A stretch of DNA of 64,000 bases from Paramacrobiotus metropolitanus (lineage: Eukaryota > Tardigrada > Eutardigrada > Parachela > Macrobiotidae). Below, piece by piece: positions 40,201-60,906 of this stretch (within the stretch, counting starts at the first letter, position 1; each line of letters starts with the position of its first letter). The stretch is taken from positions 62,001 to 126,000 of the forward strand of contig NW_026570253.1 in NCBI RefSeq assembly GCF_019649055.1. The letters run 5' to 3'. Made by a program: the position numbers and the translations under genes. The notes beneath the pieces were generated by a model that made no database searches, was not told the DNA's origin, and was given only the letters and a program-made list of their open reading frames with translations.

Positions 40201-40790
40201 AACAGCAAACGCAGTGACACTATAATTATTATATTGCACATCGTGCATGCAGTAATGAAATTCTAATTTTAAAAAATTAGGAATCTACTAAAAAGGAACT
40301 TTGTGCTGCGATGGGAAATTAAGAACATCATAGAAACATCGCTGGGTTATCTTTTTGTATAACGGCAGACGGCAGTCACTCTTGCAACCTGAATCTCAGC
40401 CTTTTCATGACGCTGCCAAATTTTAATTAACTTTATTAAGCGTGGTGGTAACCCGGAGATGTTTATCACCATTTTAATATTTGCACGCCCATGGTTTATG
40501 TGAACACATTATTACGGTATGTAGAAGCATTTGAAGTAGTGAGAAATAAAATAATCAGTGTTTGCAGGTGCTATCTGTATATCGTGCGCTTGCTGACGGT
40601 CAGCAACCTGTTTCATTGGATTAGTGCCCATATTGTCCTAACATACCCACCGGCACGCAAATACGCGGTGCGTTAATTAAAGCCAACCGTTTTATCTAAC
40701 GAAAATTATTCTCTCATATCATTTTTTATTTTATTCTGTTAGCTTCCTAGCTCAAAAATTATTCGTGAGTTCTTTTGTTGTATTGCGTAG
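34249..40790. other. Long non-coding stretch: MFSD9 promoter and 5' region of the DOMON gene
   Basis: About 6.5 kb without a recognisable protein. The left end should hold the MFSD9 promoter. The right end should hold the promoter, 5' UTR and missing first coding exon(s) of the DOMON gene, because the first clear exon (40791) opens in phase 0 with a stop just before its acceptor. A candidate non-coding exon lies at about 38338-38506 (acceptor TTGCTTGCAG, donor GTGCGC) with a short upstream ORF. Possible signal-peptide frames near 38663 and 39732 could not be joined convincingly. Confidence 0.45.
34765..34836. ncRNA. miRNA-precursor-like hairpin
   Basis: The arms 34765-34789 and 34811-34836 pair over 25 positions with two mismatches (75/26 and 77/24) and one bulged G at 34815. 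The loop is 21 nt (34790-34810). Stem length, loop size and near-perfect pairing fit an animal pre-miRNA of about 72 nt. The stem is GC-rich (GGGGCCGGT...ACCGGCCCC) in an AT-rich neighbourhood. It lies about 520 bp upstream of the MFSD9 start in non-coding sequence. I do not recognise a known miRNA seed, so a small foldback repeat remains possible. The transcribed strand is unknown. Confidence 0.55.
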
Positions 40791-41563
40791 CTGGACTACC
40801 TGAATAACGTGGACACGCCGGAACCATGCGGCATGCCACGAGGTGAGTGCGTACACACGATGCTTAAATGAATAGATCTGATAAATTGCTGCTCAGTTTT
40901 TTATGTAGGGATCAGGCGGTAATAAATGTTCATCAGTACTTCTACTGGTGATTGTTAAAATGTTGGTGAAACAATTTTGAAGGTCTGAGCGCGCCGACGT
41001 ATCTGGAATCCGGAACCGACATCAACGTCACGTGGTCTTCGGCCTATCCGCACCTGGTAACTTAGTACAACAACAGTAGTTCGTCATTGGGACGACGTCA
41101 CCAATTTTTTATTCGATTTCTTCCTTTTATTGCTACGAGTATAAAGCCGTTTTTGGCAATTGAATCGCATAGTTAGCAAACACGAAGATTCAGACACCAT
41201 ATTCAGACACCGTCTTCCCTTGATGTTAATAAATTACTGCATCTGCTATACGAAGTATATACAGTTTGGACTTGTGACAGGGCGGATACAGTATTGATCT
41301 GCTAGACGCGAATTATGATCGCGTCAGCACCCTAGTTCCTGCGTCTCTCGCCGGTCGGGAGCCGCGCGCAAACTCCGATGTGCTCAAGTGGCAAGTGGCG
41401 CCACTCAACGAGATCTCGCGGACGGTCAGTCTGCCAAAGAGTCTCCGCTGCGACAACTGCACCTTGCGCATTGTGCGCCAGGCCCTGCAGTGGAACAACT
41501 GGACCAGCGATTCCGACGGCTTCCTCTTCCGCAGCTGTGCCGATGTCACGATTCTTCCGCAAA
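40791..41563 (+). other. N-terminal beta-sandwich-like domain of the DOMON protein
   Basis: Exons 1-3 encode TPEPCGMPRGLSAPTYLESG, then NVTWSSAYPHLGGYSIDLLD, then CDNCTLRIVRQALQWNNW and FLFRSCADVTI. The C-x-x-C-T-L-R...F-R-S-C-A-D-V pattern recalls the end of metazoan LPMO/chitin-binding-3 type beta-sandwiches. The N-terminal copper-binding His of an active LPMO cannot be judged because the mature N-terminus is unknown. The fold assignment is tentative. Confidence 0.4.
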
Positions 41564-44500
41564 GTACGTCTGATTCGCAGTCAGTGCAGCTGCAAAACTA
41601 GGCTTTTAAGATTTATTATTTTTTTTGAATTTCGCTTCGAAAAATTATAGAACTGCGGTTTGGGGAATATTTCTCGATAAAGAATTATTTTATGCAATCC
41701 GCTTGGTGTACATTAGCCAAGCTGCCACATAAGTTTGATTGGCTGTCTGCGGCATCTTCGGGTTTTCTTAATACGTTTTAGGGTATCGTTGTCGCTGATA
41801 TTCCTTAACACATCTTAGGCGGGAATAATAATTATCATTTGTCCGCTTTGCTAATTGTTTACGACTGTAAATGCGCCAACAATTAAGGAATTATCCGAAA
41901 TCAGCGGTAAGGCCGGCTCCACGTGTATATATCGTGCAGTCTTTGTCACCCTGGCCAGCGAAGCATAGGCCAGCGAGACGCGGACTTTCACTGGCCGGGC
42001 CAGTGGACCGCTGCTACACTGTGCCCACTTGTGCATGACGAAACGATGACCCAACTAGCGCAGAGTGCATAAATGTGTTTTTATCCGTCGCTGAATGTTT
42101 TCAATGCTCCTTGCGTTGCAGTTGATGGCACTCTCAAATGCTCTAGTCACGGCAGCTGGACCGGAACTGAATGTCTTTGTGATGACCTTTACACCGGAAA
42201 TGCCTGCCAGTTTAAAGGTGGGCGCTGACGTGCGTGGGCGGTTGACGCCGGTGTCGGGCCGGCGTTTATGTGCTGTTGAGTGGTTTTTACGATTTGATAC
42301 GATGCTTTTTATGCTCGTTAATTCCGACCGGAAAAAAATGAAAATTCTTGAATACTGTTTTCGCTGAAAGTGTAAAAATAATTCGTATCTATCACTGCAT
42401 TAATTCTTAATGACCTCATTAATAATGGCACGTTATACATATTTAAATATCGACTATTTTCTGGTAAAACTGCCCTCTGCATTTTTGAAAGCTTTGTTTT
42501 TCTTCTTATCTTAATTTGTAAGTGGTTCATGTTAATAATATTATAATTCACCATTGCATCAACGTATTTACTGGTTTTTATTATGCTGTTTTCCTAATTG
42601 TTTTCAACTGCAAGGTCTAAATCAGTAAACAATATAACTGTCTGTTGTAGAAATTTGCAGCCGTGATAGTGACTGCAATTTTCATGGACGCTGCATAAAC
42701 ATCGGCAGCAATACAGCGCCCCAACGGCGCTGCTTCTGCAATTCTGGATGGCAGGGAATACGATGCGCACAAGGTGAGATAGTCAGGAAACAATATTTCA
42801 TTAGCGTTAATTGTCAGTCCAAGATGTGAACCGATTCCTATTGTCAACAGCGTCAAATATAATACTGTTGCCTATTGCCGCGTGCTGATGGCGCGGCGCG
42901 ATAGCAGCTATCAGAAAAAGATTTTCAACGTTTCGATAGTGTAGAGTTAGACTGAATAATGCGGTGGTTCGTAGAAACTAGAAAGTTGGGAAGGCTGGGT
43001 CTGACGTTGTCTCTCCAGGTTCATCGGTGAGAATACGCGTATTCAATAAGGCCTATTATACGCACTATCCCCTGGCCGATGAACTCCATCTCTACTGGAA
43101 GATCGACAAAAGCGCAGCGGAAATGGAAATGGTCGTCCAATCCAAATCGACCTCGTGGGTCGGCATTGGCTGGCGACCAGCAGGTACGTTACGTGTTTTG
43201 CCGATATTTACTTCTTTAGCAGTGGCAACTTGCAACCAAGAAAGTGTTTATCCGCAGTTTGGATAGTGTTTTCTCTGTGGATTCTGTGAGCGACTTGAAG
43301 TCAGCTGATATAACTGTTAATTAAAGTGAAAGAGTCACGACATAAATGAAGTTGTACTACTTATAGTACTTTGTATTAATGCTTTACGAAAAAAATTCTC
43401 TGCCGTATATTTAAATTCTGATACGCGCGCAGGATCTTTTTAAAACCACATCGTAAGATACAGATTGTGGTTTTCAGTTAATCATTTATGACGTGAATTA
43501 CAACTTGATTGACCTTAATAAGCAGACTATTTAGAACTATTTCCAAAGAAAATTTGTACACCATATTTTTAAATACGGCGTTCGTGAAATCCAATTTGCT
43601 AAATAATTACTATAATAACATAAATAACATTCGGTCGCAGTTGAGCGGCATATACTTTTCCGCATGACATTAAACCAAAACAATACAGTTGCTTTTCATG
43701 ATCAGCAGCACAGTTCAGCACCTATGGGGAAAAAATGTGTAAATGGAGGATTAGTGAAATGTTTGCTAGTATTTCTAAGATAAATCTTTGTTCCCGGCGT
43801 AGATATATCAGCCGACTGCAAAGACTTTCCTCGCTTGCCCAACGAGACCTACTGGCCACATGGAGCCGCCGTCCTGAATCACAGCCTGGATTTGGCAGCC
43901 CGTTCCCTGGATATCCTGACCTACTCCGACAACAGCGACGCTCTCATCCGCCCCCGACGGCAGGCGGAAGGTACGCTTACAGCAGAGCGTTGCTCACTTC
44001 CGGTGGAAAGTGTTGATGAAAGGGTTTGCATAGAGCTGCATCCGATGGACTGCACGGACATGGTGGTGGGGATTGCGCGCAGCAGCTACGGTCAAGTGGG
44101 CGACTACTACACACGTGACCGCTCCACCCCGCGACCGGATGGATTCTACGGGGGTATGGAGAGTTTGTCGGCCGGGATTGTCTACGAAGAGGACGGATGG
44201 ACGACGCTGCGTTTTATACGCACACTGGCCGGTAAGCGTCTGTTTTGTAATTCTTGGTCATGTCCAAAAAACCATTACCGGTACATCTGCTAATATGTTT
44301 CGGTTTTCGTATTTCATTCTTCGACATTTGCTATGAAATTTGCTTTCGAGTAATTAATTAATCTTATGCTTTTTGGGACATCTGTAATGACTAAACTGTG
44401 GCTTGTATTTGGCTACAGTCTTGTATATAAACGAATACATAAGTAATTTTTACAAAGAAGCAGTTGTTGATAATGGCGACATTTGTTTATTTAAAAGCAT

Positions 44501-47500
44501 ATCAATTCCTGAGTCGTGGTTTCGGCGGGCTGATCAGTTTTTTTGTTTAAAATACGAATGTTAGAACGAGACTCTAACACCAATAGATTTTCAAGTTATA
44601 ACGTGTGTACAAAGTATTCTGTACATCCTTATAACACAAATGAATAGTTACTTTAAAATACGTCATCACATAATTATAACATAATTAGTTAATTTTTTAA
44701 TCGGTCTTGTTGAGCTTCCGGATGGAATCAGACGGTAAATCGAAAACGACAATCCGCCAAAAGAAAATCAGAATAATAATTAACTGCACACATTCATTCA
44801 TGACTAAGGTGTTTGCAATGTGCAGTGGGGAATTAGGTTATTTAACGTTAAGTGATTACATAACTCAGCCGCCTTCCGCAAAAACGAATCTGCCGAACAA
44901 GCGGCTGACCGCCCGCGGCATGGTTAACAGATTAACGTAAACAGTACAGCAGCATTAGCGGCACACTACCATCGCGAAATTATGTCAGACCGCGCGGCAT
45001 TTGCACGGCGTGCTCACTTTCCATCGGAAGCATGCAGTTGCAGCGCATCGTTCTCATCTTTGTCATCTTCTTCTCTCCAGCTCTGGAACCCACCGATCAT
45101 GCCTTTATCCCCGGTCCCATGCACGTAGTCTTCGCCCGTGGTCCGGACGCCAGCAGCCTTAAGAAGAATCCTGCCGCATACGCGCCCACGGGCAGTCCGG
45201 CGGATGTGGGCGAATTTTATGCGGCGGATCAGCTGAAGTATCACGGCAGCGGCGGGAATGACCGTGGGTCGACAGTGATTAACTTCTTCGATGAGCACGA
45301 TAGCAGTAAGGAGCTGGGGACTCCGTGTGTGGGGGAGTGGCGGACGCCGGCCAACTGCCGCGGCAGCGGATGTCGTTATGTGGCACACTGGTCAGTCAAC
45401 GACAGAATTTTTGCTTACGTACTTAACTAGGGAATTTGCTCCTGCTTGCATACGGAAATTTGCTTTTACACGCGGAAATTTTGTTGAAAGAAACGCATTA
45501 TTATATTGATTAACGGAGTCTGAAAACATACGCTAACTGCTAGAATAATAATTGTTTAACCACTGCGAATTCGTTTGTAATCCATTCCAGATGCATAAGT
45601 AATCATGGCTACTCTTTAACTACTGTATCGTCGAGTATTTCTCAGAGCACGCAGCATTTCAATTGTATCGGATTTTACAGCTTTACCGATAACATTTTGA
45701 CCATTTTTGAACGAATTACAGTTTTGAGAGTTGAGTTTTTTATGCGGATGTTTAGAGACTGGATAAAAAAATTCCACTGTCTTTATAAAATTTTACGTGA
45801 GCAATGGAAGGCAACCTAGATCGCGCTTGCAACCGTTTTAAGGAGAATTTGTACTATGGTCGCAAGATAGAAAACGAGATTTTCGAAATTCTACAGTTGT
45901 AATAAGAAGGGTTACATCTATCACTGGGCGGAAGTTTAGTAAAATTACGGTGAAAAGAAAAAAGTTATTCAAGTTTTTTCGTTGCCGACCAGGAGCGATT
46001 TGGCGGGCTGGCGTATCTTTCTACACTACTGCCACCTGTGGTCAAAATCAGTGAAAGAAAGATTGCTTCAAGAAGCGCTTCTTTCATTCTGAAAGATGCC
46101 TTGGCTTGTGGGTGTTATATACCATGCCAGTTAGCAAGTGTGGTAGGAGCAGACAAGGCTCATGTTTACACAGTGAGGACGCATAGAGCATGACAAAGGC
46201 GCTAGACAATGGAAAGATATAGCGCTGTCCCGTGAGTGCACCTGAAAGAGTGGCCAAAGTCCACTCTTCGGTGTGCACACAATCTAGTGTGGCGGCACTG
46301 CATGCGCAGAATCGGTAAGACCAAAGGAAAGCGCAGTACAAAAGAAGGTTCTTCGTCCCATCCTGAACAATTTTCGAAAAACAACTTCTAAAATCAATAA
46401 CAATTCGCAAAGGTTTCAGAAAATTTCTAACTTTGATCAGACTTCAGAAAATCATTTTCAAAAGAATTGTGAAGCGTTTTCGTGGAAAATGTTTATGTAC
46501 TCTTTAACAAATAAAAAAAAGTAACTTTAGGTGTAAAAAAGTTTGTTTTTTGCAGCACCGGATGGGTTTTTTTGAAAAATCGCTCCACAATACTTTAGTC
46601 ATTCCATCGGAGCACATTGTTGTGCTTGAATGAAAAATTTAAAAAATCTGCTTGAATTGTTATTGCGTCCGCAAAATAACGACTTTAAATCAGTAACTTT
46701 TACACTTTAAAATACCCAAACCGAGTTCAAACTTCTAACTTATGTAGTGAAAATAACATAGTGTTTGGTGAAATGCATAGTTAGCATGCAGCACAAGGAC
46801 ACGCATTTCGCCAGCGAGAACAGTGAAAAGAGGTCGAAATCGGTAGAATCTCTACTTAAGGGGACGAAACGAAAGCGAGAAGATGGGTTATGATAGTTGA
46901 CGGTGTAATAAGCGGTAACTCTGCCGACGCTATTTTTCACTGCGCTTGCCAAGCATTTGTACTGCAAGAGTTTTGTTTTGTGGTGGAATTATAAAATAAT
47001 TTATTCGCACATGTCGGCGTTCGGCATGTTAAAAAGGTATTTTTTAAATGAAATCAAATGGAATGTGAAATGAACCATGAAAAAGTGAAATGAATAAAAG
47101 GAAGGCACATGAATCTGTTGTTTCGATATTATGGGTATTTCCGCCGACCACAGCCAAGACTCGCGTTCTCTCGTTTTAGGGAATACTTGGAGGAAATTGA
47201 TTCCATCTATTTTAAAATCCAGTCCCGCTCCAGGGAAAAATGGACCGGCATCGGCTTCTCCAGTGTTCTCGAGCACATGGTCAGTGACACAATATTGTCA
47301 AACTGCCAATCAATTTTATTTGCCGAAATTTTAGTGTTCAATATCGCGAATTGCTTAGTGTTTTCAGTAAATTAAGTAAGGGCACAGTTTCACAAATTTA
47401 TGAAAATACATGGGAAGATAATGGTAAAATTTCGAGTTTACAATAATTATTATTTCAAATACGGACAAATACTAATTACAAGCGAATAATTAAGGCCTTG

Positions 47501-50500
47501 AAGTTTCTTGTGGGGGAATAAGACAGATTCATAGTTATTATCCTCAGCCCAACTCGGATGTAATCGTGGGATGGGTGGATGACGAGGGAAAGGTGCAGAT
47601 CACCGACCGGTACGCTGACGGCTACCGCGCCCCGAAGGTGGACAAGAAACAGTACCTGCAAAACATTGCCGGCAGTGCCAACGACGCTTTCGTTACGCTG
47701 GAGTTCACCAGGCCACGAAAGGTCAGTAGGCCCTTTTCTTGACTCCCTTCGCCAACTTGATAATAATTAACCGTGAGATCATCCATATCATCTGAATTAA
47801 TTAATGGAGATTCGGTGGTGTTTGGCAGACCAATGACAGCGACAATTTTGATTTTTGGGAGGATAACTGCGCGTATTTTGAATTTCCCGTCGATGGTGGG
47901 CGATTCGATAAGATATCTGGTAAGAATTATGACTGCAGGTATATATACAGGCTGGTGCCAGTATATTTGGCGTAAAACAGGTGCTGGTGCTGTGTTTGAT
48001 CCATTATTTTTGAAGATAAGAGGTGTAAGCGGTGAAACTTTAATTTCGTCTTTTTCATTAATGTGCCAGTTTAAGTTTGCTTGGCTTTACTTATACTATT
48101 TGGTTTGGTTACTTCGCTAAAATTTTTGAATTGTGGAACAGGTGTGATCAGCAAACACCAATATATTCCTTCGGTGTCCAAGACGAAGATCTGCATCCAG
48201 TCCTGCAAGACCGTAACAACAACCGCTGCGTCCACAACGACAACGCCCACTTCCGATGCCGGTGAGTCGCAGTCTTCTCTAGGCGTCATTCTTCTCGTGA
48301 TTTTTCTGGCTGGTCTCTGTATGTCTCCTTCATCTCTGTCTCACACTGTCATGCTCTCTTGATTGCTTACAACCTTCTTGATGGTAATATGTTTCACGGT
48401 TTCACTTGCTGTTTGTTGTGAAACCCCTGAAATGAACGCGAATTTGCGTACTTCGGTCTCTGTTTGTCGCATACAACTGAATCTAACAATAAAATCGCAA
48501 CAACTCACTGTTTTTCACTTGGCTTGGGCTGTTTTGGGGTGCTGGTGCTCTGGTCTGGGCTTTTCTCCTGGTAAGGGGGTTACCCTGGTTATGATTTTCT
48601 TTAAATTCTGGTTCTCATTTAAATTTGGTTGGACAGATCAAACCGAGGAAAGCGATGCCTCGGGTGACCTTATGTCGCAAATCCAAATGGGCTCGGTCGA
48701 GCCACAACTGCGGACCGGTGAGATCTTCATCCCCGAGGAAGAGGTCACTACCGAGCTTCCTACAACGACGAGTACGAAAAAGACGACCACTACCACCACG
48801 AAACGACAAACAACACAGAAGCCCAAACCCAAACCGAAGGTTCCAGTAAAAGCGGCGGGCCGAGCACTACTGCAGCCGGTGCGCCGAGCCACGAATCCAG
48901 CGACAAAGGTCACTTCGACGACCTCCACGACGACCACAGCCACGACGCCAACGACAACGACCAGCATGGCCACAGAAGAGAAAGTGGATGATTTGGTGGT
49001 GTCGCCGCAGCAGGATTCCATGGATTACATTGATCCAGGGCAGGAGGAACAGAATGCCACCAGTACAACTTTGTCACCAACTGCGGTGCCTACGACAGTG
49101 TCAACTACGAATACCGTGATGCCTACAACTGTCAGCTCAACAACAACTGCTCCGACAACAACGACAACTGTGACTTCTACAACGAGCACGACGACAACAG
49201 CAACGACACACACAACGACGACGCCCACAACGACGACACCAACAACAACAATATCAACGACCACAACAACGACAATGCTGCCAACAACAACCGCTAAGAC
49301 GATTCCAGTAACGACGTCGACCGTTGCCACTCCGACAACTACAACGACGGCGTCCACGGCTAAGCCAATAACTACACCAGTGCCATCGACACCCACGACG
49401 CTAGTTGTCACTACTACGGAAAGTCTGATGATGGCTGAAGAAAGCGTTGTGCGCCCAGTTATACTGCAGCAGGTGTTCCACGACGACCATAAAGCGGCGC
49501 TTTATCCAAATATAAGCGTTGCCGTTTCGGTCAACAATGCGACTACAGTCGCGACAGCGCCCGTAACGAAGAAGCCGGAGGTTGTGACCAGTACCACGAC
49601 ACCGACGATGACAACGATGCCGACTACGACAAAAATATTAACGACGACACCAACGGCAGCATTAAATGTTACCGACAAGCGAACAGTTGCGATCGTTGTC
49701 GTCAACACTTCTACGACGCCACTGACTTCCATCATTACGACCGCCCAATCAGCTGCGCCGTTGATGACGACTCCCTTACTAACAACGACATCGCCCAGCT
49801 CCGGGTTAACTGCTTTATCGACGTGGAGCAAGACCATCGCGGCGTTATTAAGCGCCTCTACCAAACCCATTGTCAATGCTACATTGACAACAACAAAGCT
49901 GTCCACAGTGACCGCTTCGCCCGGTGTGACGAAAGGGTCGGATGTGAAGACGGGGCCGACGGGGTTGGGTATGGCGTTTCTAATAAAAAACGACAGCATT
50001 AGAACGCCGGCACCGGTGGCGGTGCTGTCCTCTACGACGACAACAACGGTGGCGACAACGACAGAAAAGCGACCGCCCGTGGGGGAGGGATTTCATTCGG
50101 AGTGTCGTGGAGAATGGCGATCGCCGCCCGATTGTGTAAGAATCTATCCAAACAAACAAAATAAAATATTATTAATAAAGTCGCTTAAACGGAATAAATT
50201 CTTTAAAAACTTGAATATTCGAATGAATATAAAGTATAAATACTTGCATTAAAAAACGCCAAAAAATAAATTAGGATGTTGTTGGTCTAGCCCACAGAAA
50301 AATGTGAGTATCTGGCCATGTGGGAATTCAACGTGTCATCGGGGGAGATCCAATTTTTTGTCCAGTCAGCGCACCCTGATCGCTGGACGGGGATCGGCTT
50401 CTCGTCGAATGGAAAGATGGTTAGTCGGCGATCATTCAAATGAAACAGACAGGGCTCAATTTATATGTATGTTTTGTATGATTACTGCAGCCGCAGTCAC

Positions 50501-53500
50501 AAATCATTTATGGCTACCGAACTGGCGATGCGAGCGTTGCTCTGCTGCAAGGCACCGCGGAGGGATACTATCCACCAGTCAATGACACCGACCAGGAGAT
50601 TCTGCATCCGGTTGGCTGGGTGAAAGATGGTTTATTGGGATTATCTTTCCGCCGAAATAAGACGCTGGATGGTGCATTCTGGGATGACGAAAAACTCTGT
50701 CCCTACTTCCTGTTTCCTTATACTGGTTAGTATTTGACATAGTTCGCCCAGCAATCGGTGGAGATATCGTAGCGCATTGTTTTATTATATGCATGCTACT
50801 GGAATCGTTTGGCAATAGGCAGTTTTTACGCCTGTCGGGTTATGGATTTGATAAGATTTAGAAGGTCAAGACGTCTGGCCGCACTAAGGCTTTCACAAGT
50901 TTTATCACTTACCTAAATTAATCAGAAAATTAAGCTCGTGTATGCTAAAGTTGTGTTCTGTCGGAGCATTAATAAGTCTGAAATCTATCAAATCCCTCAG
51001 GCGGTTTTTTTCGCACTGCTTTTTTTCTGTACCTGTGACATCGGTGAATACCGGTATGTAGGTGGATCGGTGGATTCGGCGTCCGGCCGCATCGGGAAGC
51101 ATATCCAGACGCCGGTGGTGAGCGCCAATCGCATCTGCATGCAGCCCTGCACGTTTTTACCCACGGTTCCAGTAACGCTGGCGCCGTCTACCACCCTGCC
51201 CACCACCCAACCGACCACTGTGCAGCCCACCACTACCACCTTGCTGCCGGTCATCGAGGGCACGCCCTGCCGCGCCATATTCTCCTACCCACGTAACTGC
51301 AACGGTTCCGATTGCATCTACGTCGCACAATGGTAAGGCTAGCGTCTTTGTGGACACTGGACACATATGTGCTCTTGCTGTGCACGCCATGTTATTGCAT
51401 TTCAGTAGTAAATTCTGCATTTTAATTAATTAGGGACTATATTCCGGATCGAGATGAGATTAACTTCCTCATACTGTCGAATCGCCTTAATACGTGGACG
51501 GGAATTGGTTTCTCCGACACCGGCGAAATGGTGAGTGACCTTTTGACCTTTTTGCCAGCGGAAAAAAAGAATTTTTATTATATCGGTTATGATGTAACAC
51601 TTGTAACGCAATCTTTAATTTGTAATTTGTAGTGTTGTAACATTTGTGGAATATTTCACTCATATTTGCAGCCGTACTCGGATATGATCGTCGGATGGGT
51701 CGGCGGAGAGGGCCGCGCCACTATCACCGATAGGTAAAGATAGTAGAATCACTGGGTACTGATATGAAGGGACTTCTTCTAAACGTAGTTGTGCGTAACT
51801 GGATAGTAAGTACGTCCGAGTGAGTGGTAGGGTGTTAGGTTAACGGCAGTTATCGCGGCCCTTATACAAGCCAAAAAGTCTGCTGTGTACATTCATGAGA
51901 TCTGCGAAAAACAGTGCACGTTCCCCACGAAAAGGTGTATTGTGTGAGATGGCTTGACGAATCAACTGTTTTATTGACAGTATTTTATATAAATTATATT
52001 GAGCTTATATTTCTATATAGATGGTCAACCGGCCACACCGAGCCCCAGCGCGATTTGCAACAAGACATTAGCCGGCTGGGCGGGACCGTGCGCTACGGCA
52101 CGCAGATGATCACTTTCACCCGCAAACGCCTTACCTTGGACGAACGCGACTACCAGTTCAACGACACTAACTGCCCGTACCTCATTTTCCCGGTCTTCGG
52201 CGGCACCTACGATGAACTAAGCGAGGTCATTGATAAACACCAAGATACACCCGTGGTCTCCGATCAGCGCATCTGCATTCGCGCCTGCCGCAAACCCTCC
52301 AACGCCACCCGCAACAGCCCCTTCAACTTTCTGGACCAGAAAGCCATCTTCCTTGACCCCGGCTTTGTCTCTTCCATCACCATGACATCGAGGGGAATAA
52401 CCACCTACTCCACGCAGTCGTTTTCTACCGACAGGACTCTGAACTTTCGCCCCATCAATTGGCATACGACCAACTACACGTTGAGGCCTACGGCGCCTCG
52501 ACGCTCTACCAAACCCAGCCCAGTATCCAATCTGACCTACCGCACGAAAACCGCGGGGATGCTGGACAACGCAACCTTTTCCGGGGGTCCTACGACCACT
52601 CCCTCGCCGGAGGAAATGCTCCAGAAGATCCTGGCTGAAGCTGGCCTCTCGGGAGTTTCTGTGGAGGTCGTCAATCCGCCGGTGGCGGTGCCGCCGCCGC
52701 CACCGCGAACAACGGTCAGCAGTCCGCCGCTGTTGTTCACCAGCACCGTCCGCAGTCCCAACGGGACCGTCGGGGCAAACCTCGCCGCTCTGGCAACGCT
52801 CGTCCTAGACAGCAAACCGGAGAATGTGACCCTGTCCCCGCTAGCCAGCGTCTCTCCGTCATTCACCCCACCCCCCGGAGCGGTCTTATTGTCGGTTACC
52901 AGTCAGAATACTCCGGCCTTTTCTTCCCCGTCTAGTCCGCTCGGTACCATCAGCCAACCGACTGTCCCTTCGATCCTGGTGCTCCCGCCCAAGGGCAGTG
53001 GCGTGATGCATTCGGAGCCGCGCCAAGATGGACCGGAGATTAAAAGCTCGGACAACACTGTTACCGGCGTGAATTTACAGGGCCGTGCCCCCTCCGAACC
53101 TCTGGCCGCGCAGATCGGACCCCTCCCGACCACGCCTGGTTGCGTCAGCGCCGACGATATGTTCAAACAGATTTTACTGAGCATGTCATCCTCCACCCGT
53201 CCTGACACGGCTACTAAGCCTAGCCAGCCGCCCACGGGCACCATCTCCGTGACGCGTCCAAGCAATCTTCCACCGGAGTTTGATACTTCTTCATCGGTGG
53301 CTATCCCATTCATCCTCCCAGATCCCAGTGCGCCGCCCAAGTACACTCCCTGGACCACCCGGGGCGATGTGTTTATGGGGTCGGCCTCGGAGACTATTGG
53401 TGTGCGGGTGACGGCGCCGCCTACCCCGAGGAGCACTACTCGTAGTGCACTGGACAACACCACTCGGATTGCGCAGGCGTTGACTTTTAGTGAGAATGAC

Positions 53501-56500
53501 CAGGGACAGCTGGGAAAAGATCCGCTGTGCGGGGATAACTTTCGCTTCCCGTCCGGCTGCGAGAAAGAGCAGTGTCTGTATATGGCCACATGGCGGCCGG
53601 GCAGTAATGTGGACGAAGTGGAGTTCATCATTGAGACCGGGACACCGGATCTGTGGACTGGGATTGGCTTCGGTGATGATCGGCATATGGTCAGTACTTG
53701 AAATTTGGCATTGACGGCTTTGGTAACGATGGTGTTGCCGTTTCTTGGTTGTTTCATCCGTCAAGATTTGGCTTTTACGTTATATTTCTGCATTTGCAAG
53801 CGCGTGCAAACCCTGTGCCGTGTTATTACAAAGGCATAGTATCAAACACAGCGTTTCGGTTGCGTATTGCAATAATAAGCTGAACTTTAAAGTGCGCATA
53901 ATGTAGCAGAGTCACTTCATCCAGGGATACCCCTATTTAACCTTCCTCAGAGTTTTTGTATGACGCTGTTGTACGACAGGCCATCGGCCCATCCATATAC
54001 TTACTCGTAGCATTTTCAGTACTCGTAGTTTAAAAACTTAGTATAGTATTAACAATTTACAAGTACATTAATAATGTTACAAAGCTGAAAAACGTGATTA
54101 ATGGGCAGGTCGATTCGGACATTATTTATGGGTTCATCCGGTCCACTGGGATACCAAAAATGGTGGATGCCTACGCCAAGGACTATACGGCGCCGGTCAA
54201 GGACTTTAGCGACAACATCCGCGTTATCGAAGGCGGTCGACGCGGCAACCGCGCTTTCTTTCACTTTGCCCGCAAACTGGCCACCGGCGACAAGTACGAT
54301 TACGAGTTCGGCCGCGGTCGCTGTCCCTACTTTAAGTTCCCCATCATGGGTTCCACCTTCTCCGAGAGCATGAGTACCGGGAGTATCGCCAAGCACCGAC
54401 GAACGCCCATCGTCAGTCCCATGAAGATCTGCATCGCCAGCTGCAATGCCGAGCAACTAGCAGCCTTACGGGAGACGACGACCGTAGCTACCACGACGAC
54501 CACCGTTCCCACCAGTACGTACCGTGAGAATTACTCTGTCTGTGCTGTTCCTGTGGCATTCATAACGTTAACTTTAAACCGAGGAGTTTTTTTCAGTCAA
54601 CAAATTGTTCATATAAAACACTAAATTCTAATAAATATAACAGTGAGAATCTAAACAAATTTTATTTGTGCTCAGCAAGAGTACGAGTGTTGTACAAGCA
54701 GGCGCCTGTGGACACATTTCACTGGTTGCACTTTCAAGTTACTATGTGATATCATAATCATACGAACACTGAGCCTGTAACCCAAGCGTTTATACGAGGT
54801 AGTAATCCCAGTCGTTCGTTAATTCGCTTATTGCACGTTAATTTTTTTGACTATAGCGGCTGCCGCCAATCGCAGCCCCTCCGTAGCAAAAACGGCGGTT
54901 TTGGCCGGCACCAAAGCTGCCGGCGCAGACGGCAACTCCAGCTCAGAGAAGGCGCTGGTCTGTGCAGGGGAGTTCCGATATCCCGACGGTTGCTTGGAGG
55001 ACAAATGCCAGTACGTGGCACAGTGGGAGTATTTGCCGGCCACCGACGAAATTAAGTTCGACATTGTCAGCGCCGATGTTGACAAATGGACTGGCATCGG
55101 CTTCAACGATAAGTCACTCATGGTACGTCTACCGTTACCAAAACCGTTACCGTTATTTCTCCGTTGTGACGTGTCAGCTTATGCTTTTGTTGAAAAACAG
55201 TGGGACCTAACAAAATCCAATAGGACTGTTACAATATAATTACAAAGTAGAAGGAATTACAAATAACGTAGGCTAAACTTCAGTGAATGTTGTTTTGACG
55301 CAGTCTTTGGCCGACATGTTCTACGGGTGGGTGGGCGAGGACGGCAAAGGGATGCTGATCGATGCGAAAGCGCCGGAAGGCCGCCAGCAGCCGGTGCGTG
55401 ATATGATACAGGATGGGAAGAACCTCACTGCTCGGCGAAACGAGCGCTTCACGCAGCTGACCTTCACCCGCCGGCGACTGACGAAGGACAAGAATGACTT
55501 CCAGTTCACCGACGACGCCTGTGCCTACCTGCTGTTCCCGGTGAAGGGCGGCGACTTCAATGCCGACGCCCTCATGATCAGCAAACACGAGGCAGTCGCG
55601 CAGATCAGTCAGAAGCGGGTCTGCATCACGTCGCAGTGCGCGGCGCAGATGAGTACACCAGGTGAGTCTCCAGCACGATCCAGTGCTAACAGATATTTTG
55701 TTCGCGCTGTCCGTGTTAGAGATATGATCTTATAGCCTCTTGCAAGTTTGATGAAAATACTAACAGCTAACTTTCCTGCTAAAATTGATTCTGCCCGTTT
55801 AAAAGTGGAAAACTTTTTTGATTTTTCCCAGAGTATAGCGAATGTATACATACGCTCGGTTGTTTTATACGGTTTGTAACATTACCAAGCATTACCAAGC
55901 AAGTAACATTGCCGGTGTAATTACCTTACTTAGCCACTTATTTTGAGCAGAGTAAAACTTTTATCGCTTGTCTGATCGCTTTACAGAAGGTGTTTTTAGA
56001 ATTTAAACAAAATTTTTGCTATCTCAAACACAGTTTAATGTTCTTTCGAAAGCGTGTTTTCTGGTTCGCAGCTTATGGCGCTCAGTATTAATCGTTACGC
56101 TACCTTTTTTGTTGGTAACCGTTATAGAAAAATGGTGTCTTTTTAACAGATGTTGGTAAACCGTCCGAGAAACGAATGCAAAGTGACTTGCCAGCGGGAC
56201 AAAATTCCAATGCCACGCTTCAACCGACCACCACAACAGAAAGCACTACCATCAGCATACGTAAGTGCGCAGACCAAAATCATTACACTAACAAATCACA
56301 GCAGTATGACTTCCGGTGTTGTGATAACTGTCACTAATCACTGTTACTAATCACTGTTACTGCTGATTACAAACATGAACATGGTCGACATAAACCTTTA
56401 ACTGGAAACGGGACGTTGTTGCAGCGAGTTATCTGCCGTGTGAGGGCACGTGGAAGTATCCGGACAACTGCGCCGAGCCCAACTGCATCTACGTCGCTTC

Positions 56501-58864
56501 GTGGAATTTCCTGGACGATGCAGACGCCATCCGCTTCGTGGTCAAGGCTAAAGCAGCCGGCTGGACCGGCATCGGCTTCAACGACGACATGGCCATGGTC
56601 AGTGCCGCTGCATGTTGTTTGACACTCAGAGTTCCAACCCACTCCACTCACCGAAACCTGTGCAAACCTACGAGCATAAAATTTTAAATTTTTAAAAATG
56701 GATTCTGCTGAACAATTTGTAGATCTGTGTATGTAAACAATCATTTTACTGAAAGCAGTATACGTACTGCATTTTGTTAGGAATGCATCTGCAATAAGGC
56801 AACTGCAACTGTATGTTCTGATTACAGAAAAACGCGGACGCCGTGATCGGATGGGTAACGTCAAAGAACTCGGTGGTCGTCACTGACCGGCACTGCGTGG
56901 ACAATCTGGGCGCGCCCATGGATGACGAGCAGGACGTCTTCGATGTTGCCGGTCGTAAAGAGGTAGTTCATCCCCACGGCGCTACCTCAAAATATACACA
57001 GAAAAATAATAAAACTGAACCGAAAGTATGAACGGAATTATATTTATTCATATCACATGCAGCGATTTTGTTCTGCGCAGGATGGCTACCAAGTAATTGA
57101 ATTCACCCGCAAACGCGATACTGCCGACGTCAACGCACAGGACTACATTTTTGGCGATCAGAAGTGCCCGTTCTTTATTTTCCCCGTGGTGGGCGGTGCC
57201 TACGACAGCTACGGTGGGATCCAAGCGCACAGTCAGAAAGCCTTGCCCAAGATCAGCTCCGGGCGCATCTGCGTGCGCAGCTGCAGTGTGGACGTGGCGC
57301 GCCGCATGGTGGTCACCTTTCGCATCGTCGACCGCAGCTGGACGCCGGAGATGGATTCACGCAGTAGTGCCGGCTTCAAGAAGCTGGAAGCGGAGGTCAG
57401 CGCGTCTATGAGGAAACTGCTGGGCAGTACGCCGGGCTTCCGGGGGACGCGGGTATTGAGTATGCGGCCAGGGAGTGTCGTCGTCGACGTGGAGATCGTC
57501 ATTGATCCCACGGCCAATCAGACTTCAACAGCCGCCGCCAAAACCATGCGGGAGATCCTGGTGAGCACCGTCAAAACACGTCATCAGCTGGGAACATCGT
57601 CCTTCACTGTGGATCCCGACAGTCTCACCATTTCTAACGCAGAACGTAAGCGCCGTTGATTTCGTTAGCTGAGTGCTGCTTCACTGGCTTAATGAACTGC
57701 TTATCAGCTTTCTGAACATTTAATAAGCTCACACCTACTTAAAAGTGAATCCATGCAGCTAGCTGTTTGTTTTTAGACACTAAAACTAAAAAGTTATTTG
57801 TAACCTGTACATCAGTACATAGTAACATCTTTAATTTCATACATTTATGAAATTTGGCAAAATCGTGGAGGTTTCGAAACTACCATAAGACTTGTGCGAG
57901 TAGTTTGTTATTGTATAAAGCACACCTACTGGTACGCAGATAAAACACCACCTTTTACACTGCGAAATTAAGTCCGCTAAAGCAAGTGTTCTTGCATACG
58001 TTTGTGTTTGGATTTGTTTGTGGTGCTAATTTTATTGTTGGCTGGTGTTGTAGAGCTGTTTATGAACGGTGTTCCGACTGCGTCCTCAGACACCACCACC
58101 GTGGCGATGGGCAACAAGGCTCCCGAGTCGGAAGTGCGCACCTATGCCATCATTGGCGGTGTTTGCGGAATCATTGTTATCTTGTTGTTACTGGCTTTCG
58201 GCAAAGTGTGGTACGACCGGAAATCTCGCATTCAACGTCACCGAGAACGAACGGTAAGCTACTCCTTTTCTGACGTACAGATAGCGTAGCGAAACGTTTC
58301 TCAAATTTCCACATTTGCGACCAAACAGCGGTAGAATCTACAGAACGACGCATGTGCTTTGTGCTAATCAGAATGATTTTCCAGCGCAAACAGAGTCTGG
58401 ACGCTGCCGCTGCCATGGAAGTCTCCTCCCGCGCCCACTCGCATCCTCATTCTCATAGTCGCCCGGGCTCCCTCCAACCGCGACAGCACTACGGTCTCCC
58501 GCAGCCGCCCTACGACCTCGTTCACTCGGAGCCGAAACGGCCGCTGCGGCAATCCAGCGGGATGATCTCGCAGATGAGCGGAAGTCTGCCGCCTCCCGAC
58601 TACTTCGACCACCAGCCGCGGAAGCCCAGCAAGGGCTCGGTGGGGGTGGTGGGACAGCGGCTCAGCGCCGAGGAGAGCGAACGTACGCTGACCACCTACA
58701 GCAGTACGGATTCGCGCAAGGTGAAGAAGGTGCGAGAGGCGGAGGAAGAGGAGGACGAAGACTGGGGCGAGGTGGAGGATCTGCGCGACCAGCGCCCGGC
58801 TGATTTCTATTTTATGCCTAGTCAGCGCCGCTGGACGCAGGTTCCCGACAAGTTCAGCACGTGA
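40791..58864 (+). CDS. Giant type I membrane protein with seven DOMON domains, EGF-like modules, mucin linkers, SEA domain and PPxY tail (start not found)
   Basis: Twenty-eight exons keep one frame: 40791-40842, 40983-41056, 41281-41563, 42122-42217, 42651-42773, 43019-43183, 43803-44231, 45081-45390, 47180-47279, 47548-47721, 47829-47919, 48142-48261, 48637-50135, 50291-50419, 50491-50725, 51062-51332, 51434-51530, 51672-51733, 52021-53689, 54109-54514, 54857-55122, 55304-55661, 56150-56260, 56425-56597, 56828-56962, 57081-57645, 58054-58253 and 58385-58864. They total about 2,890 residues. Order: beta-sandwich-like domain, two EGF-like modules, DOMON 1, six Cys-box/DOMON units, SEA, TM, tail. 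DOMON domains are known to bind haem or sugars. Here they are extracellular by topology, so an adhesion, matrix or haem/sugar-binding receptor is inferred. I know no named orthologue with this order. A signal peptide should lie in an upstream exon that I could not identify. Confidence 0.85.
42122..42773 (+). other. Two EGF-like modules of the DOMON protein, one per exon
   Basis: Both exons are flanked by phase-1 introns, the classic shuffling phase for EGF modules. Exon 42651-42773 has all six cysteines: C-SRDSD-C-NFHGR-C-INIGSNTAPQRR-C-F-C-NSGWQGIR-C. Exon 42122-42217 (KCSSHGSWTGTECLCDDL and following) keeps four. The first and third cysteines, which normally pair with each other, are both absent. 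Confidence 0.75.
43019..45325 (+). other. DOMON domain 1 of the giant protein (classical form)
   Basis: Exons 6-8. The start is ADELHLYWKIDKSAAEMEMV, then STSWVGIGWRPA, then DCTDMVVGIARSSYGQVGDY, TTLRFIRTLAA and GPMHVVFARG near the end. It matches canonical DOMON order better than units 2-7, and its intron positions differ from theirs. A dibasic RPRR in exon 7 resembles a furin site. Confidence 0.75.
48207..50102 (+). other. Mucin-like linker 1 (Thr-rich, mostly one 1.5-kb exon)
   Basis: The end of exon 12 and exon 13 (48637-50135) encode nearly 500 residues dominated by Thr with Ser, Val, Ala and Pro in TTTT/PTT runs, a typical O-glycosylation platform. It begins with an acidic stretch (TEESDASGDLMSQ) and a Lys/Pro patch before the Thr runs. 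The ACN-rich DNA leaves long antisense frames open; these are shadows. Confidence 0.85.
52289..53527 (+). other. Mucin-like linker 2 (Ser/Thr/Pro-rich)
   Basis: About 410 residues inside the single 1.67-kb exon 19 separate units 4 and 5. The linker is Pro/Ser/Thr-rich with a VAVPPPPPRTT run. Two similar segments (PSPEEMLQKILAEAGLSG and SADDMFKQILLSMSSS) look like short amphipathic helices repeated about 180 residues apart. Confidence 0.8.
57291..57645 (+). other. SEA domain with G-SVVV autoproteolysis motif
   Basis: After the last Cys motif, RRMVVTFRIVDRSWTPEMDS opens a roughly 110-residue SEA domain. The motif RPGSVVVDVEIVID (codons for G-S at 57471-57476) matches the MUC1-type self-cleavage site G|SVVV. 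The domain ends with TMREILVSTV and SSFTVDPDSLTIS. It sits directly before the membrane helix, as in MUC1-like receptors. Confidence 0.85.
58054..58864 (+). other. Transmembrane helix and cytoplasmic tail of the DOMON protein
   Basis: Exon 27 encodes YAIIGGVCGIIVILLLLAF (about 58143-58199), followed by a basic stop-transfer stretch (KVWYDRKSRIQRHRERT), giving type I topology. Exon 28 encodes a tail of about 160 residues with a His/Ser-rich patch (HSHPHSHSRPG), a PPYDLV and a PPPDYF motif (PPxY-type WW-domain ligand), Ser/Thr clusters and an acidic run (EEEEDEDWGEVEDL). It ends at TGA 58862-58864. Confidence 0.88.
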
Positions 58865-60906
58865 TCGTGCGCATATGATTGTCTTTGATGTACTCGATGA
58901 CCTTAATGCGCAAATGTTTTGTATATTAAGCGAAATGGCGACGGTCAACAAGGAAATGTTTATGAACATGAGCAGTAACTGCCACACGTTTCCCAAAAGA
59001 CATACTGATTAACAAATAAAGGATACAAGATTTTTCGCATATTATAAGCAGCCACGTACGGCGGCAGTTCCGGAAAGGGCTTTTTAGCGATGCTGAATGG
59101 CTAATGACGTGCACATATACGGTTACGATAATCGCACACCACATTGTACAAAGCGCAAGATTTTGACCATCCGAGTTCTCCTCTCGTCGAGAAACTGAAA
59201 CGGCCTTGAATTTGATGCAATCTAATGCCCATTGGAACACATTACCCAACAAAATTGCCAATATGCTGGGATGGATGTCCGTGCGAGTAATAGGCACTAC
59301 AAGTGCCGGTGATGGTCGGCCACGTGCACACCCGACCCGAATTGTAGTTTGTCGTTCCGTAATAAAGAAACTCCGAAGAATGGCCATTGTCGGAGAAAAC
59401 AGGAACATGTGACTGTCACCGTCTCGCTTTTAAACAGTTTTTGTCGTAAAGCTTGAATAAAATATCGCTTGTGAGTAACAGTGCTGCGTTACTATGCGTC
59501 GCACAAAGCGATGGTGGACTCAAGCACGTAGCAGCCGATCAATAATGCCGGTCGGTGCAGGTGTGTGGATGGAGGTGGGCACAGTATTATGGCCATGGGA
59601 TGAAAATGGAGCAACACAGATCTTCCAGCGCCTATGACTACATGACTTCGGCTACCGTACCTCCGTATCCTGATTTACCTACAAACCTAAGTAACATACC
59701 CATTATAATCAATGTGGTGCGCGTGCAGTACGTGCATGCACGTGTTGCAACTTTCCAAAAACGGTCGTCACAGCGTTTTTAATCTTAATCGAAAAACAAC
59801 AACTCTTAGCTAATGACACTTAAACGGTGTATTTGTCAGATGACTGCAAAAATTTATCTTTACTTGTTCCCAAATGTGGACTAGCCGCTCTTGAGATAGT
59901 CAAAATGAGTCGGACATGGTCAAAATGAGTCGTTGTATTCCGTTGTCGATCCCAAAATTAAGCGGATGAATGGTTTAGCTCGCTGTTAGTGTTGTGGATT
60001 GGATATACCTACCTATGCGGCTGTGCCTTAATTTTAAGGAACCATTAACTTTATATTTATTATGCATGATATTAGACCAACAAGTACTGTAAGTAAGCCT
60101 TACTTTGTCGTTGAGAATAACGAGCCAATGTTTGTACGCTACAAAAAAGCAAGTGTTCTAAACTGGAAGCTTTGCGAAACCGATCGTGATACAGTAACCG
60201 TTTACTAAAATCGCTTATTTACTGATCGATTCTGATAATAAATACTTATTAATATGTAGTCAGTATGAGTAGTACTTATAATAAGTACCTACTTTCCGGT
60301 GCTTAATAATACTGTAATAAAATAATTTTTGTTAATATTAGTCATTGGTTTTATTGCGTTGTTGTTGTACTTGTACATAGCACTACATTGTAAAGTCGCG
60401 AGCACATGTATTGTACGGTACGAGTACTAGTAAGTACACTTAAACGCTACAGTGCCTTACTGTGGCGAATTCCCCGGCGGATGCTGTTGCTTAGCAAAGT
60501 CCTGTATTAATTATGCTCACTTTGAGAGTAAATAGTAACTCGATAATAAATCATTAATGCGTAAAATTATTGGGAATACTTTTAGTTAGCACCTACATAA
60601 TATTCCGCATTGACGGAATAGGCACTTACTGTAACCACAAGTGTGTGCAAAATAATAATACTTATTGTAATTTCTAATACGTGCTGACTTGCAGTTACGT
60701 ACTTAATAATTATTCATGGTTTTCTTAGACACTAATAATATTTTTATGCTTTTGTAAACGGTGAATCGCCTGCAATGCTAAGCGTCGAATTTATTTAAGA
60801 AAAACTCGAATATCGATAAATATACGAAGAGCGCGCATTGGGATTATTTAATTGTAGTGTGTTGGATATAATGACGTATACGTAAAAGTTCTGGCAGTGA
60901 TTGTGA
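58865..60906. other. Intergenic region between the DOMON gene and DZIP1
   Basis: About 2 kb with the DOMON 3' UTR on the left and the DZIP1 promoter on the right. The 14-mer GTCAAAATGAGTCG occurs twice (59899-59912 and 59919-59932). The part 60200-60700 is AT-rich with many TAATAA and GTAC words. A 160-codon minus-strand frame (59408-58926) has no family resemblance. Confidence 0.4.
59015..59020 (+). promoter_or_regulatory. Candidate polyadenylation signal AATAAA of the DOMON gene
   Basis: The first AATAAA downstream of the stop codon, 151 bp after it. Position and sequence fit; no transcript evidence. Confidence 0.4.

What the first reader, a model, noticed from the sequence alone, without database searches (positions are those of the whole stretch)
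40791..58864. A roughly 2,900-residue receptor-like protein with seven DOMON domains between EGF modules and a SEA/TM/PPxY end
Seen: 28 exons keep one frame from the N-terminal domain to the tail, with canonical splice sites throughout. Known: DOMON domains usually occur singly or in pairs, in haem or sugar-binding proteins such as Skeletor, Knickkopf, MOXD1 and ferric reductases. Inference: seven DOMON domains on mucin stalks with a SEA domain and a signalling-capable tail could form an extracellular haem/sugar sensor or a cuticle/matrix receptor. I know of no described family with this order.
Basis: partly seen in the sequence, partly recalled or inferred. Interest (0 to 1): 0.85.

Follow-up and report, generated by a model that had tools for sequence, protein, structure and literature searches.

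The report
Tardigrade copper-and-haem cell-surface giant
This tardigrade gene appears to encode a roughly 2,900-residue cell-surface protein that chains a copper-enzyme-like domain of the kind that cuts sugar polymers to seven haem-type domains on a mucin stalk, a combination I found in print only as a passing remark about related sequences.

Summary
All 30 join in one frame with AG/GT boundaries: 2,932 residues. Pfam confirms seven DOMONs, two EGFs and SEA.

The mature protein starts with His, and residues 30-178 are an LPMO-like copper domain: Pfam LPMO_10 just over cut-off; only significant PDB hit the insect AA15 LPMO 5msz (E 2.1e-4), with second copper His and axial aromatic aligned. Four paralogues share the LPMO-EGF-EGF-DOMON start.

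All seven DOMONs carry a Met and a His; in DOMON2-7 these align with Met65/His163, the haem ligands of cellobiose dehydrogenase. They look like b-haem domains rather than sugar binders. CAHS homologues indicate a tardigrade.

Most likely: a membrane-anchored copper/haem redox protein of the extracellular matrix, haems feeding copper as CDH does for fungal LPMOs. Cofactor binding is inferred from sequence; catalysis and electron transfer are untested. PMC6950343 mentions LPMO_10/EGF/DOMON sequences in one sentence; ten searches found nothing on the full architecture.

The parts
40491..40628 (+). Likely signal peptide (residues 1-29), exons 1-2; exon 1 (40491-40516) is the least certain exon, as the 51-nt intron also reads through in frame
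   Evidence: judged by eye (A at -1, H at +1), no signal-peptide program was run; paralogues show the same signal-peptide/His junction
40629..41562 (+). LPMO-like (AA15-like) copper domain, residues 30-178, exons 2-5; His1 = H30 (40629-40631), His2 = H83 (41051-41053), axial aromatic F167 (41527-41529)
   Evidence: Pfam LPMO_10 24.2 bits, cut-off 23; 5msz E 2.1e-4 with chain residues H91 and Y184 aligned; positions
42139..43020 (+). Two EGF-like modules, residues 185-252, exons 6-7 and the first 2 nt of exon 8
   Evidence: Pfam EGF_Teneurin 38 bits, EGF_2 27.6 bits
43033..45145 (+). DOMON1, residues 257-471, with a long insert; M388, H456
   Evidence: Pfam DOMON 49.5 bits
45326..48206 (+). DOMON2, residues 532-696; M586, H680
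   Evidence: Pfam DOMON 97.7 bits, CDH-cyt 30.1 bits, cut-off 27
48207..50102 (+). Thr-rich mucin stalk 1, residues 697-1203
   Evidence: 49% S/T/P over 700-1205
50103..51150 (+). DOMON3, residues 1204-1365; M1257, H1349
   Evidence: Pfam DOMON 51.6 bits
51151..51267 (+). short Thr/Pro linker, residues 1366-1404
   Evidence: 59% S/T/P over 1372-1405
51268..52288 (+). DOMON4, residues 1405-1568; M1458, H1552
   Evidence: Pfam DOMON 87.3 bits, CDH-cyt 27.4 bits, cut-off 27
52289..53527 (+). mucin stalk 2, residues 1569-1981
   Evidence: 41% S/T/P over 1570-1975
53528..54444 (+). DOMON5, residues 1982-2147; M2035, H2131
   Evidence: Pfam DOMON 67.2 bits
54961..55639 (+). DOMON6, residues 2206-2371; M2259, H2354
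   Evidence: Pfam DOMON 72.1 bits
56439..57284 (+). DOMON7, residues 2421-2586; M2473, H2568
   Evidence: Pfam DOMON 88.1 bits
57300..57644 (+). SEA domain, residues 2592-2706, with GSVVV at 57471-57485 (MUC1-type autoproteolysis motif; MUC1 motif recalled)
   Evidence: Pfam SEA 53.4 bits
58140..58214 (+). transmembrane helix, residues 2736-2760 (hydrophobic stretch, by eye)
   Evidence: translation
58215..58864 (+). cytoplasmic tail, residues 2761-2932, PPDY motif at residue 2843 (58592-58603); stop codon ends at 58864
   Evidence: first AATAAA after the stop at 59015

Best explanation
One tardigrade gene (40491-58864, + strand, 30 exons) encodes a type I membrane protein in three extracellular clusters: [LPMO-like copper domain - EGF - EGF - DOMON1 - DOMON2], mucin stalk, [DOMON3 - DOMON4], mucin stalk, [DOMON5 - DOMON6 - DOMON7 - SEA], then a TM helix and a PPxY tail. 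Inferred mechanism: the N-terminal histidine brace binds copper and oxidises chitin or another matrix polysaccharide. DOMON1-7 each hold a b-type haem with Met/His ligation and reduce or buffer the copper site, as the cytochrome of cellobiose dehydrogenase does for fungal LPMOs, but here copper and haem domains are on one chain. The stalk and SEA domain (probably self-cleaving) hold it at a cell surface facing the matrix and let it detach under load. Shown by sequence: domain order, brace residues, Met/His pairs, anchor. Inferred: metal and haem loading, electron flow, substrate, site of expression.
For: 30 exons in one frame with AG/GT boundaries. LPMO_10 over cut-off in the window protein (24.2 vs 23) and matched at E <= 0.1 in 5 of 5 family members. 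The family profile finds only the AA15 LPMO 5msz at a significant E in the PDB (2.1e-4); window His2 falls on its residue 91 and the axial Phe on its residue 184, the second brace His and the axial Tyr named in PMC5823890 (passages). His directly after a likely signal peptide in 5 of 5 members: in the window and C18 it is in the reading frame of the domain exon; in C6, C15 and C123 the first exon was found by a scan that asked for a His codon, so these three are biased. In the 10-row DOMON alignment one column has His in 10 of 10 and one has Met in 9 of 10 rows, no other column has nine His or nine Met; in the window's DOMON2-7 both are 6 of 6. These two columns align with CDH Met65 and His163 in MAFFT and in 3 of 4 hhalign settings; in the fourth (mact 0.35) only the Met is reached. 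1pl3 differs from 1d7b at exactly that Met. DOMON1 has both residues in its equivalent motifs. CDH-cyt Pfam model over cut-off in DOMON2 and DOMON4. CDH cytochrome reduces LPMO copper; docking models put its haem propionate near the copper (PMC4507011, abstract and passages). dN/dS 0.28 against the C44 paralogue over part of exon 21 and exons 22-24, 26-28.
Against: Copper and haem binding are read from sequence alone; no structure was predicted. LPMO_10 passes its cut-off by 1.2 bits only. The domain is 149 aa against 201 in 5msz, and the residue two before the axial aromatic is F, H, P, Y and P in the five members where 5msz has Glu182 (read by eye); a Gln/Glu there is common in active LPMOs (recalled), so oxygenase activity may be lost. 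TdAA15A's Ala89 (two before His2) is also not kept. The chain has no dehydrogenase or cytochrome b561 in the pieces scanned to supply electrons, and mucin stalks of about 500 and 400 residues part the DOMON clusters, so a continuous wire of seven haems is unlikely. DOMON1 His is kept in 3 of 5 paralogous DOMON1s (C6 and C18 have Gln). The match to CDH is modest: hhalign 79% and E 1.5e-5 against three CDH-type cytochromes, 17% and E 3.1e-4 in global mode, 29% and E 6e-4 over 54 columns against one CDH alone. The single DOMON2 sequence did not find CDH in the PDB, nor did the A4 profile, which found DBH, a DOMON without haem, at 6.7e-7. CDH-cyt is over cut-off in 2 of 7 DOMONs only.
Confidence: 0.45

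Rival explanations
1. Same protein and cofactors, but the LPMO-like domain is no oxygenase: it binds copper (as BIM1/X325-type LPMO-like proteins are said to; recalled) or simply a polysaccharide, and the haem DOMONs serve as redox buffer, haem or peroxide sensor or adhesive modules in the matrix.
For: Second-sphere position differs from TdAA15A in 5 of 5 members (by eye); one of five members also matches Pfam BIM1-like weakly (E 0.071); mucin, SEA, TM and PPxY suit a surface structural or sensing protein.
Against: Brace histidines are invariant in 5 of 5 (three His1 found by a biased scan) and the axial position is Phe or Tyr in 5 of 5; [quoted passage not shown] LPMO_10 matches 5 of 5, BIM1-like 1 of 5.
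Confidence: 0.33
2. Two genes or strong isoforms meet at 48.3 kb: a GPI-like anchored LPMO-EGF-DOMON1-DOMON2 protein ending by read-through of exon 14, and a separate mucin-DOMON3-7-SEA-TM protein.
For: Read-through of exon 14 gives a stop at 48360-48362 after a hydrophobic stretch (LGVILLVIFLAGL), with AATAAA at 48488; the frame upstream of exon 15 holds a signal-like MVICFTVSLAVCC with ATG at 48381; the C18 paralogue seems to end soon after DOMON1 with a hydrophobic C-terminus.
Against: Donor GTGAGT at exon 14 and phase-matched acceptor at exon 15; stop and ATG would lie 18 nt apart, leaving no room for UTRs; exon 10 joins DOMON1 to DOMON2 in one exon; the C44 copy carries an exon-10-like stretch in one open frame with DOMON5. 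AATAAA is frequent in this window (122 on both strands).
Confidence: 0.13
3. One reading: DOMONs act as sugar or mixed haem/sugar ligand sensors in a receptor.
For: DOMONs of some families bind sugars; TM and PPDY tail could signal.
Against: Met and His in 7 of 7 DOMONs; PMC10691727 says these are not conserved in sugar-binding DOMONs or DBH (passages). Three other DOMONs of this genome, read by eye as controls: C33:731.9 kb has the Met but no His before the last strand, C151 has Phe for Met, C36 has the Met and its second half was not seen.
Confidence: 0.09

Closest known systems
AA15 LPMOs (Thermobia TdAA15A, PDB 5msz)
   Same: N-terminal His after the signal peptide, second His, axial aromatic, C-terminal CAD(V/I)xI strand; only significant PDB hit of the family profile
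   Different: About 149 instead of 201 residues; second-sphere residues differ; fused to EGF, DOMON, mucin, SEA, TM instead of the CBM1, CBM14, GH18 or GH19 fusions named in PMC5823890 (passages)
Unnamed LPMO_10/EGF/DOMON sequences near the base of the LPMO tree (PMC6950343)
   Same: LPMO_10, EGF and DOMON domain-containing sequences in one branch (passage); fits the five-member LPMO-EGF-EGF-DOMON core found here
   Different: One sentence in the passages I saw; no haem or brace analysis of them there, no multi-DOMON, SEA or TM form; I could not see which species (supplements not available)
Cellobiose dehydrogenase cytochrome domain (1d7b) with its LPMO partner
   Same: Met/His haem ligands aligned; pairing of a haem domain of the DOMON type with a copper LPMO
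   Different: In fungi separate proteins, one haem, flavin dehydrogenase as electron source (PMC4507011); here one chain, seven DOMONs, no dehydrogenase found
CYBDOM / SDR2 / CG8399 (reeler-DOMON-cytb561)
   Same: membrane protein with extracellular haem-type DOMON; Met and His conserved (PMC10691727, passages)
   Different: no cytochrome b561 or reeler match in the pieces scanned; DOMON usually one there, two in 19 of 888 insect hits (same paper)
Dopamine beta-hydroxylase DOMON (4zel)
   Same: best PDB match of the DOMON profile, E 6.7e-7
   Different: the aligned DBH segment has no Met at the ligand position; not followed by a DBH catalytic domain
Knickkopf / Skeletor type DM13-DOMON proteins
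   Same: extracellular DOMON beside another redox domain in ecdysozoan cuticle biology (recalled)
   Different: no DM13 in the pieces scanned; a separate DOMON gene that I take for Knickkopf-like lies on the same contig (its DM13 match is below cut-off)
Transmembrane mucins with SEA (MUC1 type, recalled)
   Same: Thr-rich stalk, SEA with GSVVV, TM, short tail
   Different: redox-type domains in the ectodomain

Membership tests
AA15/LPMO (catalytic) | Histidine brace: N-terminal His1 plus a second His | tested here: met
   H30 follows a likely signal peptide; H83 aligns with 5msz H91; both invariant in 5 of 5, three of the His1 found by a biased scan
AA15/LPMO (catalytic) | Significant sequence match to the family | tested here: met
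   LPMO_10 24.2 vs cut-off 23; 5msz E 2.1e-4 by profile. Margin is small
AA15/LPMO (catalytic) | Axial aromatic residue | tested here: met
   F167 aligned with Y184; F or Y in 5 of 5
AA15/LPMO (catalytic) | Second-sphere Gln/Glu near the axial residue (recalled) | tested here: not met
   F, H, P, Y, P at that position in the five members (by eye)
AA15/LPMO (catalytic) | Copper-dependent oxidation of a polysaccharide | not testable with these tools
   needs protein
DOMON | Pfam PF03351 over its cut-off | tested here: met
   7 of 7
Haem b DOMON / CDH cytochrome type | Met and His haem ligands | tested here: met
   7 of 7 in the window; aligned to CDH Met65/His163 for DOMON2-7; DOMON1 by motif only
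Haem b DOMON / CDH cytochrome type | CDH-cyt Pfam model over cut-off | tested here: inconclusive
   2 of 7 over the cut-off (DOMON2, DOMON4), 2 below it (DOMON3, DOMON7), 3 without match
Haem b DOMON / CDH cytochrome type | bound haem b | not testable with these tools
   needs spectroscopy
CYBDOM | cytochrome b561 transmembrane core | tested here: not met
   one hydrophobic TM stretch seen in the translation; no b561 match in the ten pieces scanned
SEA transmembrane mucin | SEA domain next to a TM helix behind a Ser/Thr-rich stalk | tested here: met
   SEA 53.4 bits, TM 2736-2760, stalks 41-49% S/T/P

The most novel reading that the evidence does not exclude
A self-wired, membrane-anchored animal polysaccharide monooxygenase: one chain holding an AA15-like copper centre and seven Met/His b-haem domains, so that the extracellular matrix of tardigrades (for example cuticle chitin) is remodelled by an enzyme that carries its own electron store and is released by SEA cleavage. 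Animals would then have fused the two halves of the fungal CDH-LPMO system.
Probability: 0.3. Interest if true: 0.87.

Novelty: new variant of a known kind. Interest (0 to 1): 0.73.

Why it matters
What reduces LPMOs in animals is, as far as I know, unsettled; a protein with an LPMO-like copper site and haem-type DOMONs on one chain makes a direct test possible. It would also link two separate puzzles, the role of orphan DOMON proteins in animal matrices and the role of endogenous AA15-type LPMOs in chitin remodelling. The four shorter paralogues (LPMO-EGF-EGF-DOMON) look small enough to express and assay.

Tried and rejected
Pfam on single exons: LPMO was not seen until exons were joined (Zona_CL2, E 0.01, on one exon; rejected as chance). 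The LPMO_10 family search of the whole genome gave 0 matches at E <= 1; since the domain lies over four exons and the search goes exon by exon, it is no evidence of absence. SL1 spliced-leader scan for a nematode host: 0 matches, in the window only, so weak; host settled as tardigrade by CAHS homologues, 20 matches, best E 3e-69. In the C44 copy I took FIPGQMHLVF for an exon-10 relic from its likeness to exon 10 and its flank; not tested further. Single-sequence PDB search with DOMON2 gave only chance-level hits, best E 0.099, mostly myosin light chains. Ten paper searches; none returned a paper on DOMON domain with tardigrades or DOMON domain with EGF and SEA domain; the library lacks most subscription journals. 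Coral DOMON paper PMC3204972 (passages): type I membrane DOMON proteins, no LPMO in the passages. No other animal genome could be searched, so the spread of the architecture outside this genome is unknown. When the report was checked, one search was run to verify the ligand columns; it showed that at hhalign mact 0.35 the His is not reached, which is now told.
Full report
Observation. The gene model holds. Reading the splice sites by hand gives 30 exons, with AG before each internal exon start and GT after each internal exon end, that keep one frame for 2,932 residues: 40491-40516, 40568-40667, 40791-40842, 40983-41056, 41281-41563, 42122-42217, 42651-42773, 43019-43183, 43803-44231, 45081-45390, 47180-47279, 47548-47721, 47829-47919, 48142-48261, 48637-50135, 50291-50419, 50491-50725, 51062-51332, 51434-51530, 51672-51733, 52021-53689, 54109-54514, 54857-55122, 55304-55661, 56150-56260, 56425-56597, 56828-56962, 57081-57645, 58054-58253, 58385-58864. 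The first AATAAA on the + strand after the stop is at 59015. The model rests on DNA and homology; no transcript was available.

Host. The window is part of contig C33 of a 169.8 Mb assembly in 533 contigs. A CAHS protein, of a family I recall as tardigrade-specific, finds 20 matches, the best at E 3e-69 and 65% identity, so I take the host for a tardigrade.

Domains. Pfam on ten spliced pieces finds LPMO_10 (24.2 bits, cut-off 23), EGF-type repeats, DOMON in 7 of 7 expected places (49.5 to 97.7 bits), CDH-cyt over its cut-off in DOMON2 and DOMON4, and SEA (53.4 bits). Two stalks of about 500 and 400 residues are 49% and 41% Ser/Thr/Pro. The SEA domain has the sequence GSVVV, the self-cleavage motif I recall from MUC1; the C44 paralogue has GGVVV there, so of these two copies only the window's keeps the Ser. 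The tail holds PPDY.

The N-terminal domain. Residue 30, the first after the likely signal peptide, is His. The genome holds four more genes with a similar start: C6:2245-2247 kb, C15:134-136 kb, C123:271-274 kb and C18:1265-1268 kb. In each a hydrophobic leader is followed directly by His-Ile (in C6, C15 and C123 the first exon was found by a scan that required a His codon before a donor site). The five domains share 34 invariant columns, among them H1, H54 and CAD. Their profile finds one chain in the PDB at a significant E, 5msz, the AA15 LPMO of Thermobia (2.1e-4; the other listed hit, a pullulanase, is at 1.6), and in that alignment H54 falls on chain residue 91 and the axial aromatic on residue 184, which the structure paper names as second brace His and axial Tyr (PMC5823890, passages). 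LPMO_10 matches 5 of 5 members at E <= 0.1, BIM1-like 1 of 5 at 0.071. Against catalysis: the position two before the axial residue, Glu in 5msz, is F, H, P, Y and P here (by eye).

The DOMONs. The ten-row alignment of DOMON2-7, three C44 copies and one C48 copy has six invariant Cys columns, one invariant His column (10 of 10) and one near-invariant Met column (9 of 10; the exception is the C48 copy, whose splice junction I guessed); no other column reaches nine His or nine Met. Aligned with three cytochrome domains (1d7b, 6jt6, 4qi3), the Met and His fall on CDH Met65 and His163 in MAFFT and in 3 of 4 hhalign settings; in the fourth the alignment stops before the His. 1pl3 differs from 1d7b at that Met. 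The hhalign probability is 79% (E 1.5e-5), 17% in global mode, and 29% against one CDH alone, so the CDH relation rests on this together with the Pfam hits; the best PDB match of the profile is the haem-less DOMON of DBH (6.7e-7). DOMON1 has both residues in its equivalent motifs; among the five paralogous DOMON1s the Met is in 5 of 5 and the His in 3 of 5. In the literature this pair marks haem DOMONs and is not conserved in sugar-binding DOMONs and DBH (PMC10691727, passages). Three other DOMONs of the genome, read by eye: the one at C33:731.9 kb (I take it for Knickkopf-like) has the Met but no His, the one at C151 has Phe for Met, and for the one at C36 (Met present) the second half was not seen.

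One gene? Exon 10 carries the end of DOMON1 and the start of DOMON2, exon 18 joins DOMON3 to DOMON4, exon 21 DOMON4 to DOMON5, exon 28 DOMON7 to SEA. In a C44 paralogue the donors of exons 21-24 and 26-28 and the acceptors of exons 22-24 and 26-28 are in place (exon 25 not compared, no GT at the end of exon 29); the seven exons compared are 66-95% identical in protein and give dN/dS 0.28 (dS 0.50). That copy also carries an exon-10-like stretch in one frame with DOMON5. The weak point is the exon 14/15 junction: exon 14 read-through gives a hydrophobic C-terminus and a stop at 48360-48362, AATAAA follows at 48488, and the frame before exon 15 holds a signal-like stretch with ATG at 48381. An isoform or split there cannot be excluded; at least one short paralogue (C18) seems to end after DOMON1 with a hydrophobic tail.

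How it may work. Fungal CDH passes electrons through its cytochrome to the LPMO copper, and docking models put the haem propionate near the copper (PMC4507011, abstract and passages). Here copper-type and haem-type domains are on one chain, closest in the cluster LPMO-EGF-EGF-DOMON1-DOMON2 and in the four short paralogues. I think the best reading is a surface redox protein that acts on, or keeps hold of, matrix polysaccharide; seven haems in a row as a wire is unlikely because of the long stalks. The electron source is unknown.

Known or new. LPMO_10 with EGF and DOMON is mentioned in one sentence of PMC6950343 (passage) as an early branch of the LPMO tree. In ten searches I found no paper that describes the present order or DOMON proteins in tardigrades. 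No other animal genome was within reach, so I call it a new variant of a known kind and leave its spread open.

Noticed in passing
48262-48362: Read-through of exon 14 encodes a hydrophobic C-terminal stretch and stop, with AATAAA at 48488: a possible GPI-like short isoform with LPMO, EGFs and DOMON1-2.
   Followed up: partly
L001, L002, L003, L004 (G000 C6, C15, C123, C18): Four shorter LPMO-EGF-EGF-DOMON paralogues in the same genome; C18 seems to end with a hydrophobic C-terminus soon after DOMON1, the ends of the other three were not worked out.
   Followed up: partly
L005 and L006 (G000 C44:513001-533000): Duplicated DOMON5-7-SEA-TM gene with an exon-10-like stretch in one frame with DOMON5, the SEA Ser replaced by Gly, and a further partial DOMON5-6 copy upstream.
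   Followed up: partly
L007, L008 (G000 C48 and C154): One DOMON of the same type found in each; architecture not worked out.
   Followed up: no
L010 (G000 C33:731401-732800): DOMON gene with a DM13 match below cut-off (Knickkopf-like, my naming) about 600 kb away on the same contig; DOMON without the haem His.
   Followed up: partly
60907-63427: Downstream neighbour looks like a DZIP1-type zinc finger protein (recognised by eye only).
   Followed up: no
window, whole: AATAAA occurs 122 times on both strands against a mean of 75.5 in 100 dinucleotide shuffles, none of which reached 122.
   Followed up: no
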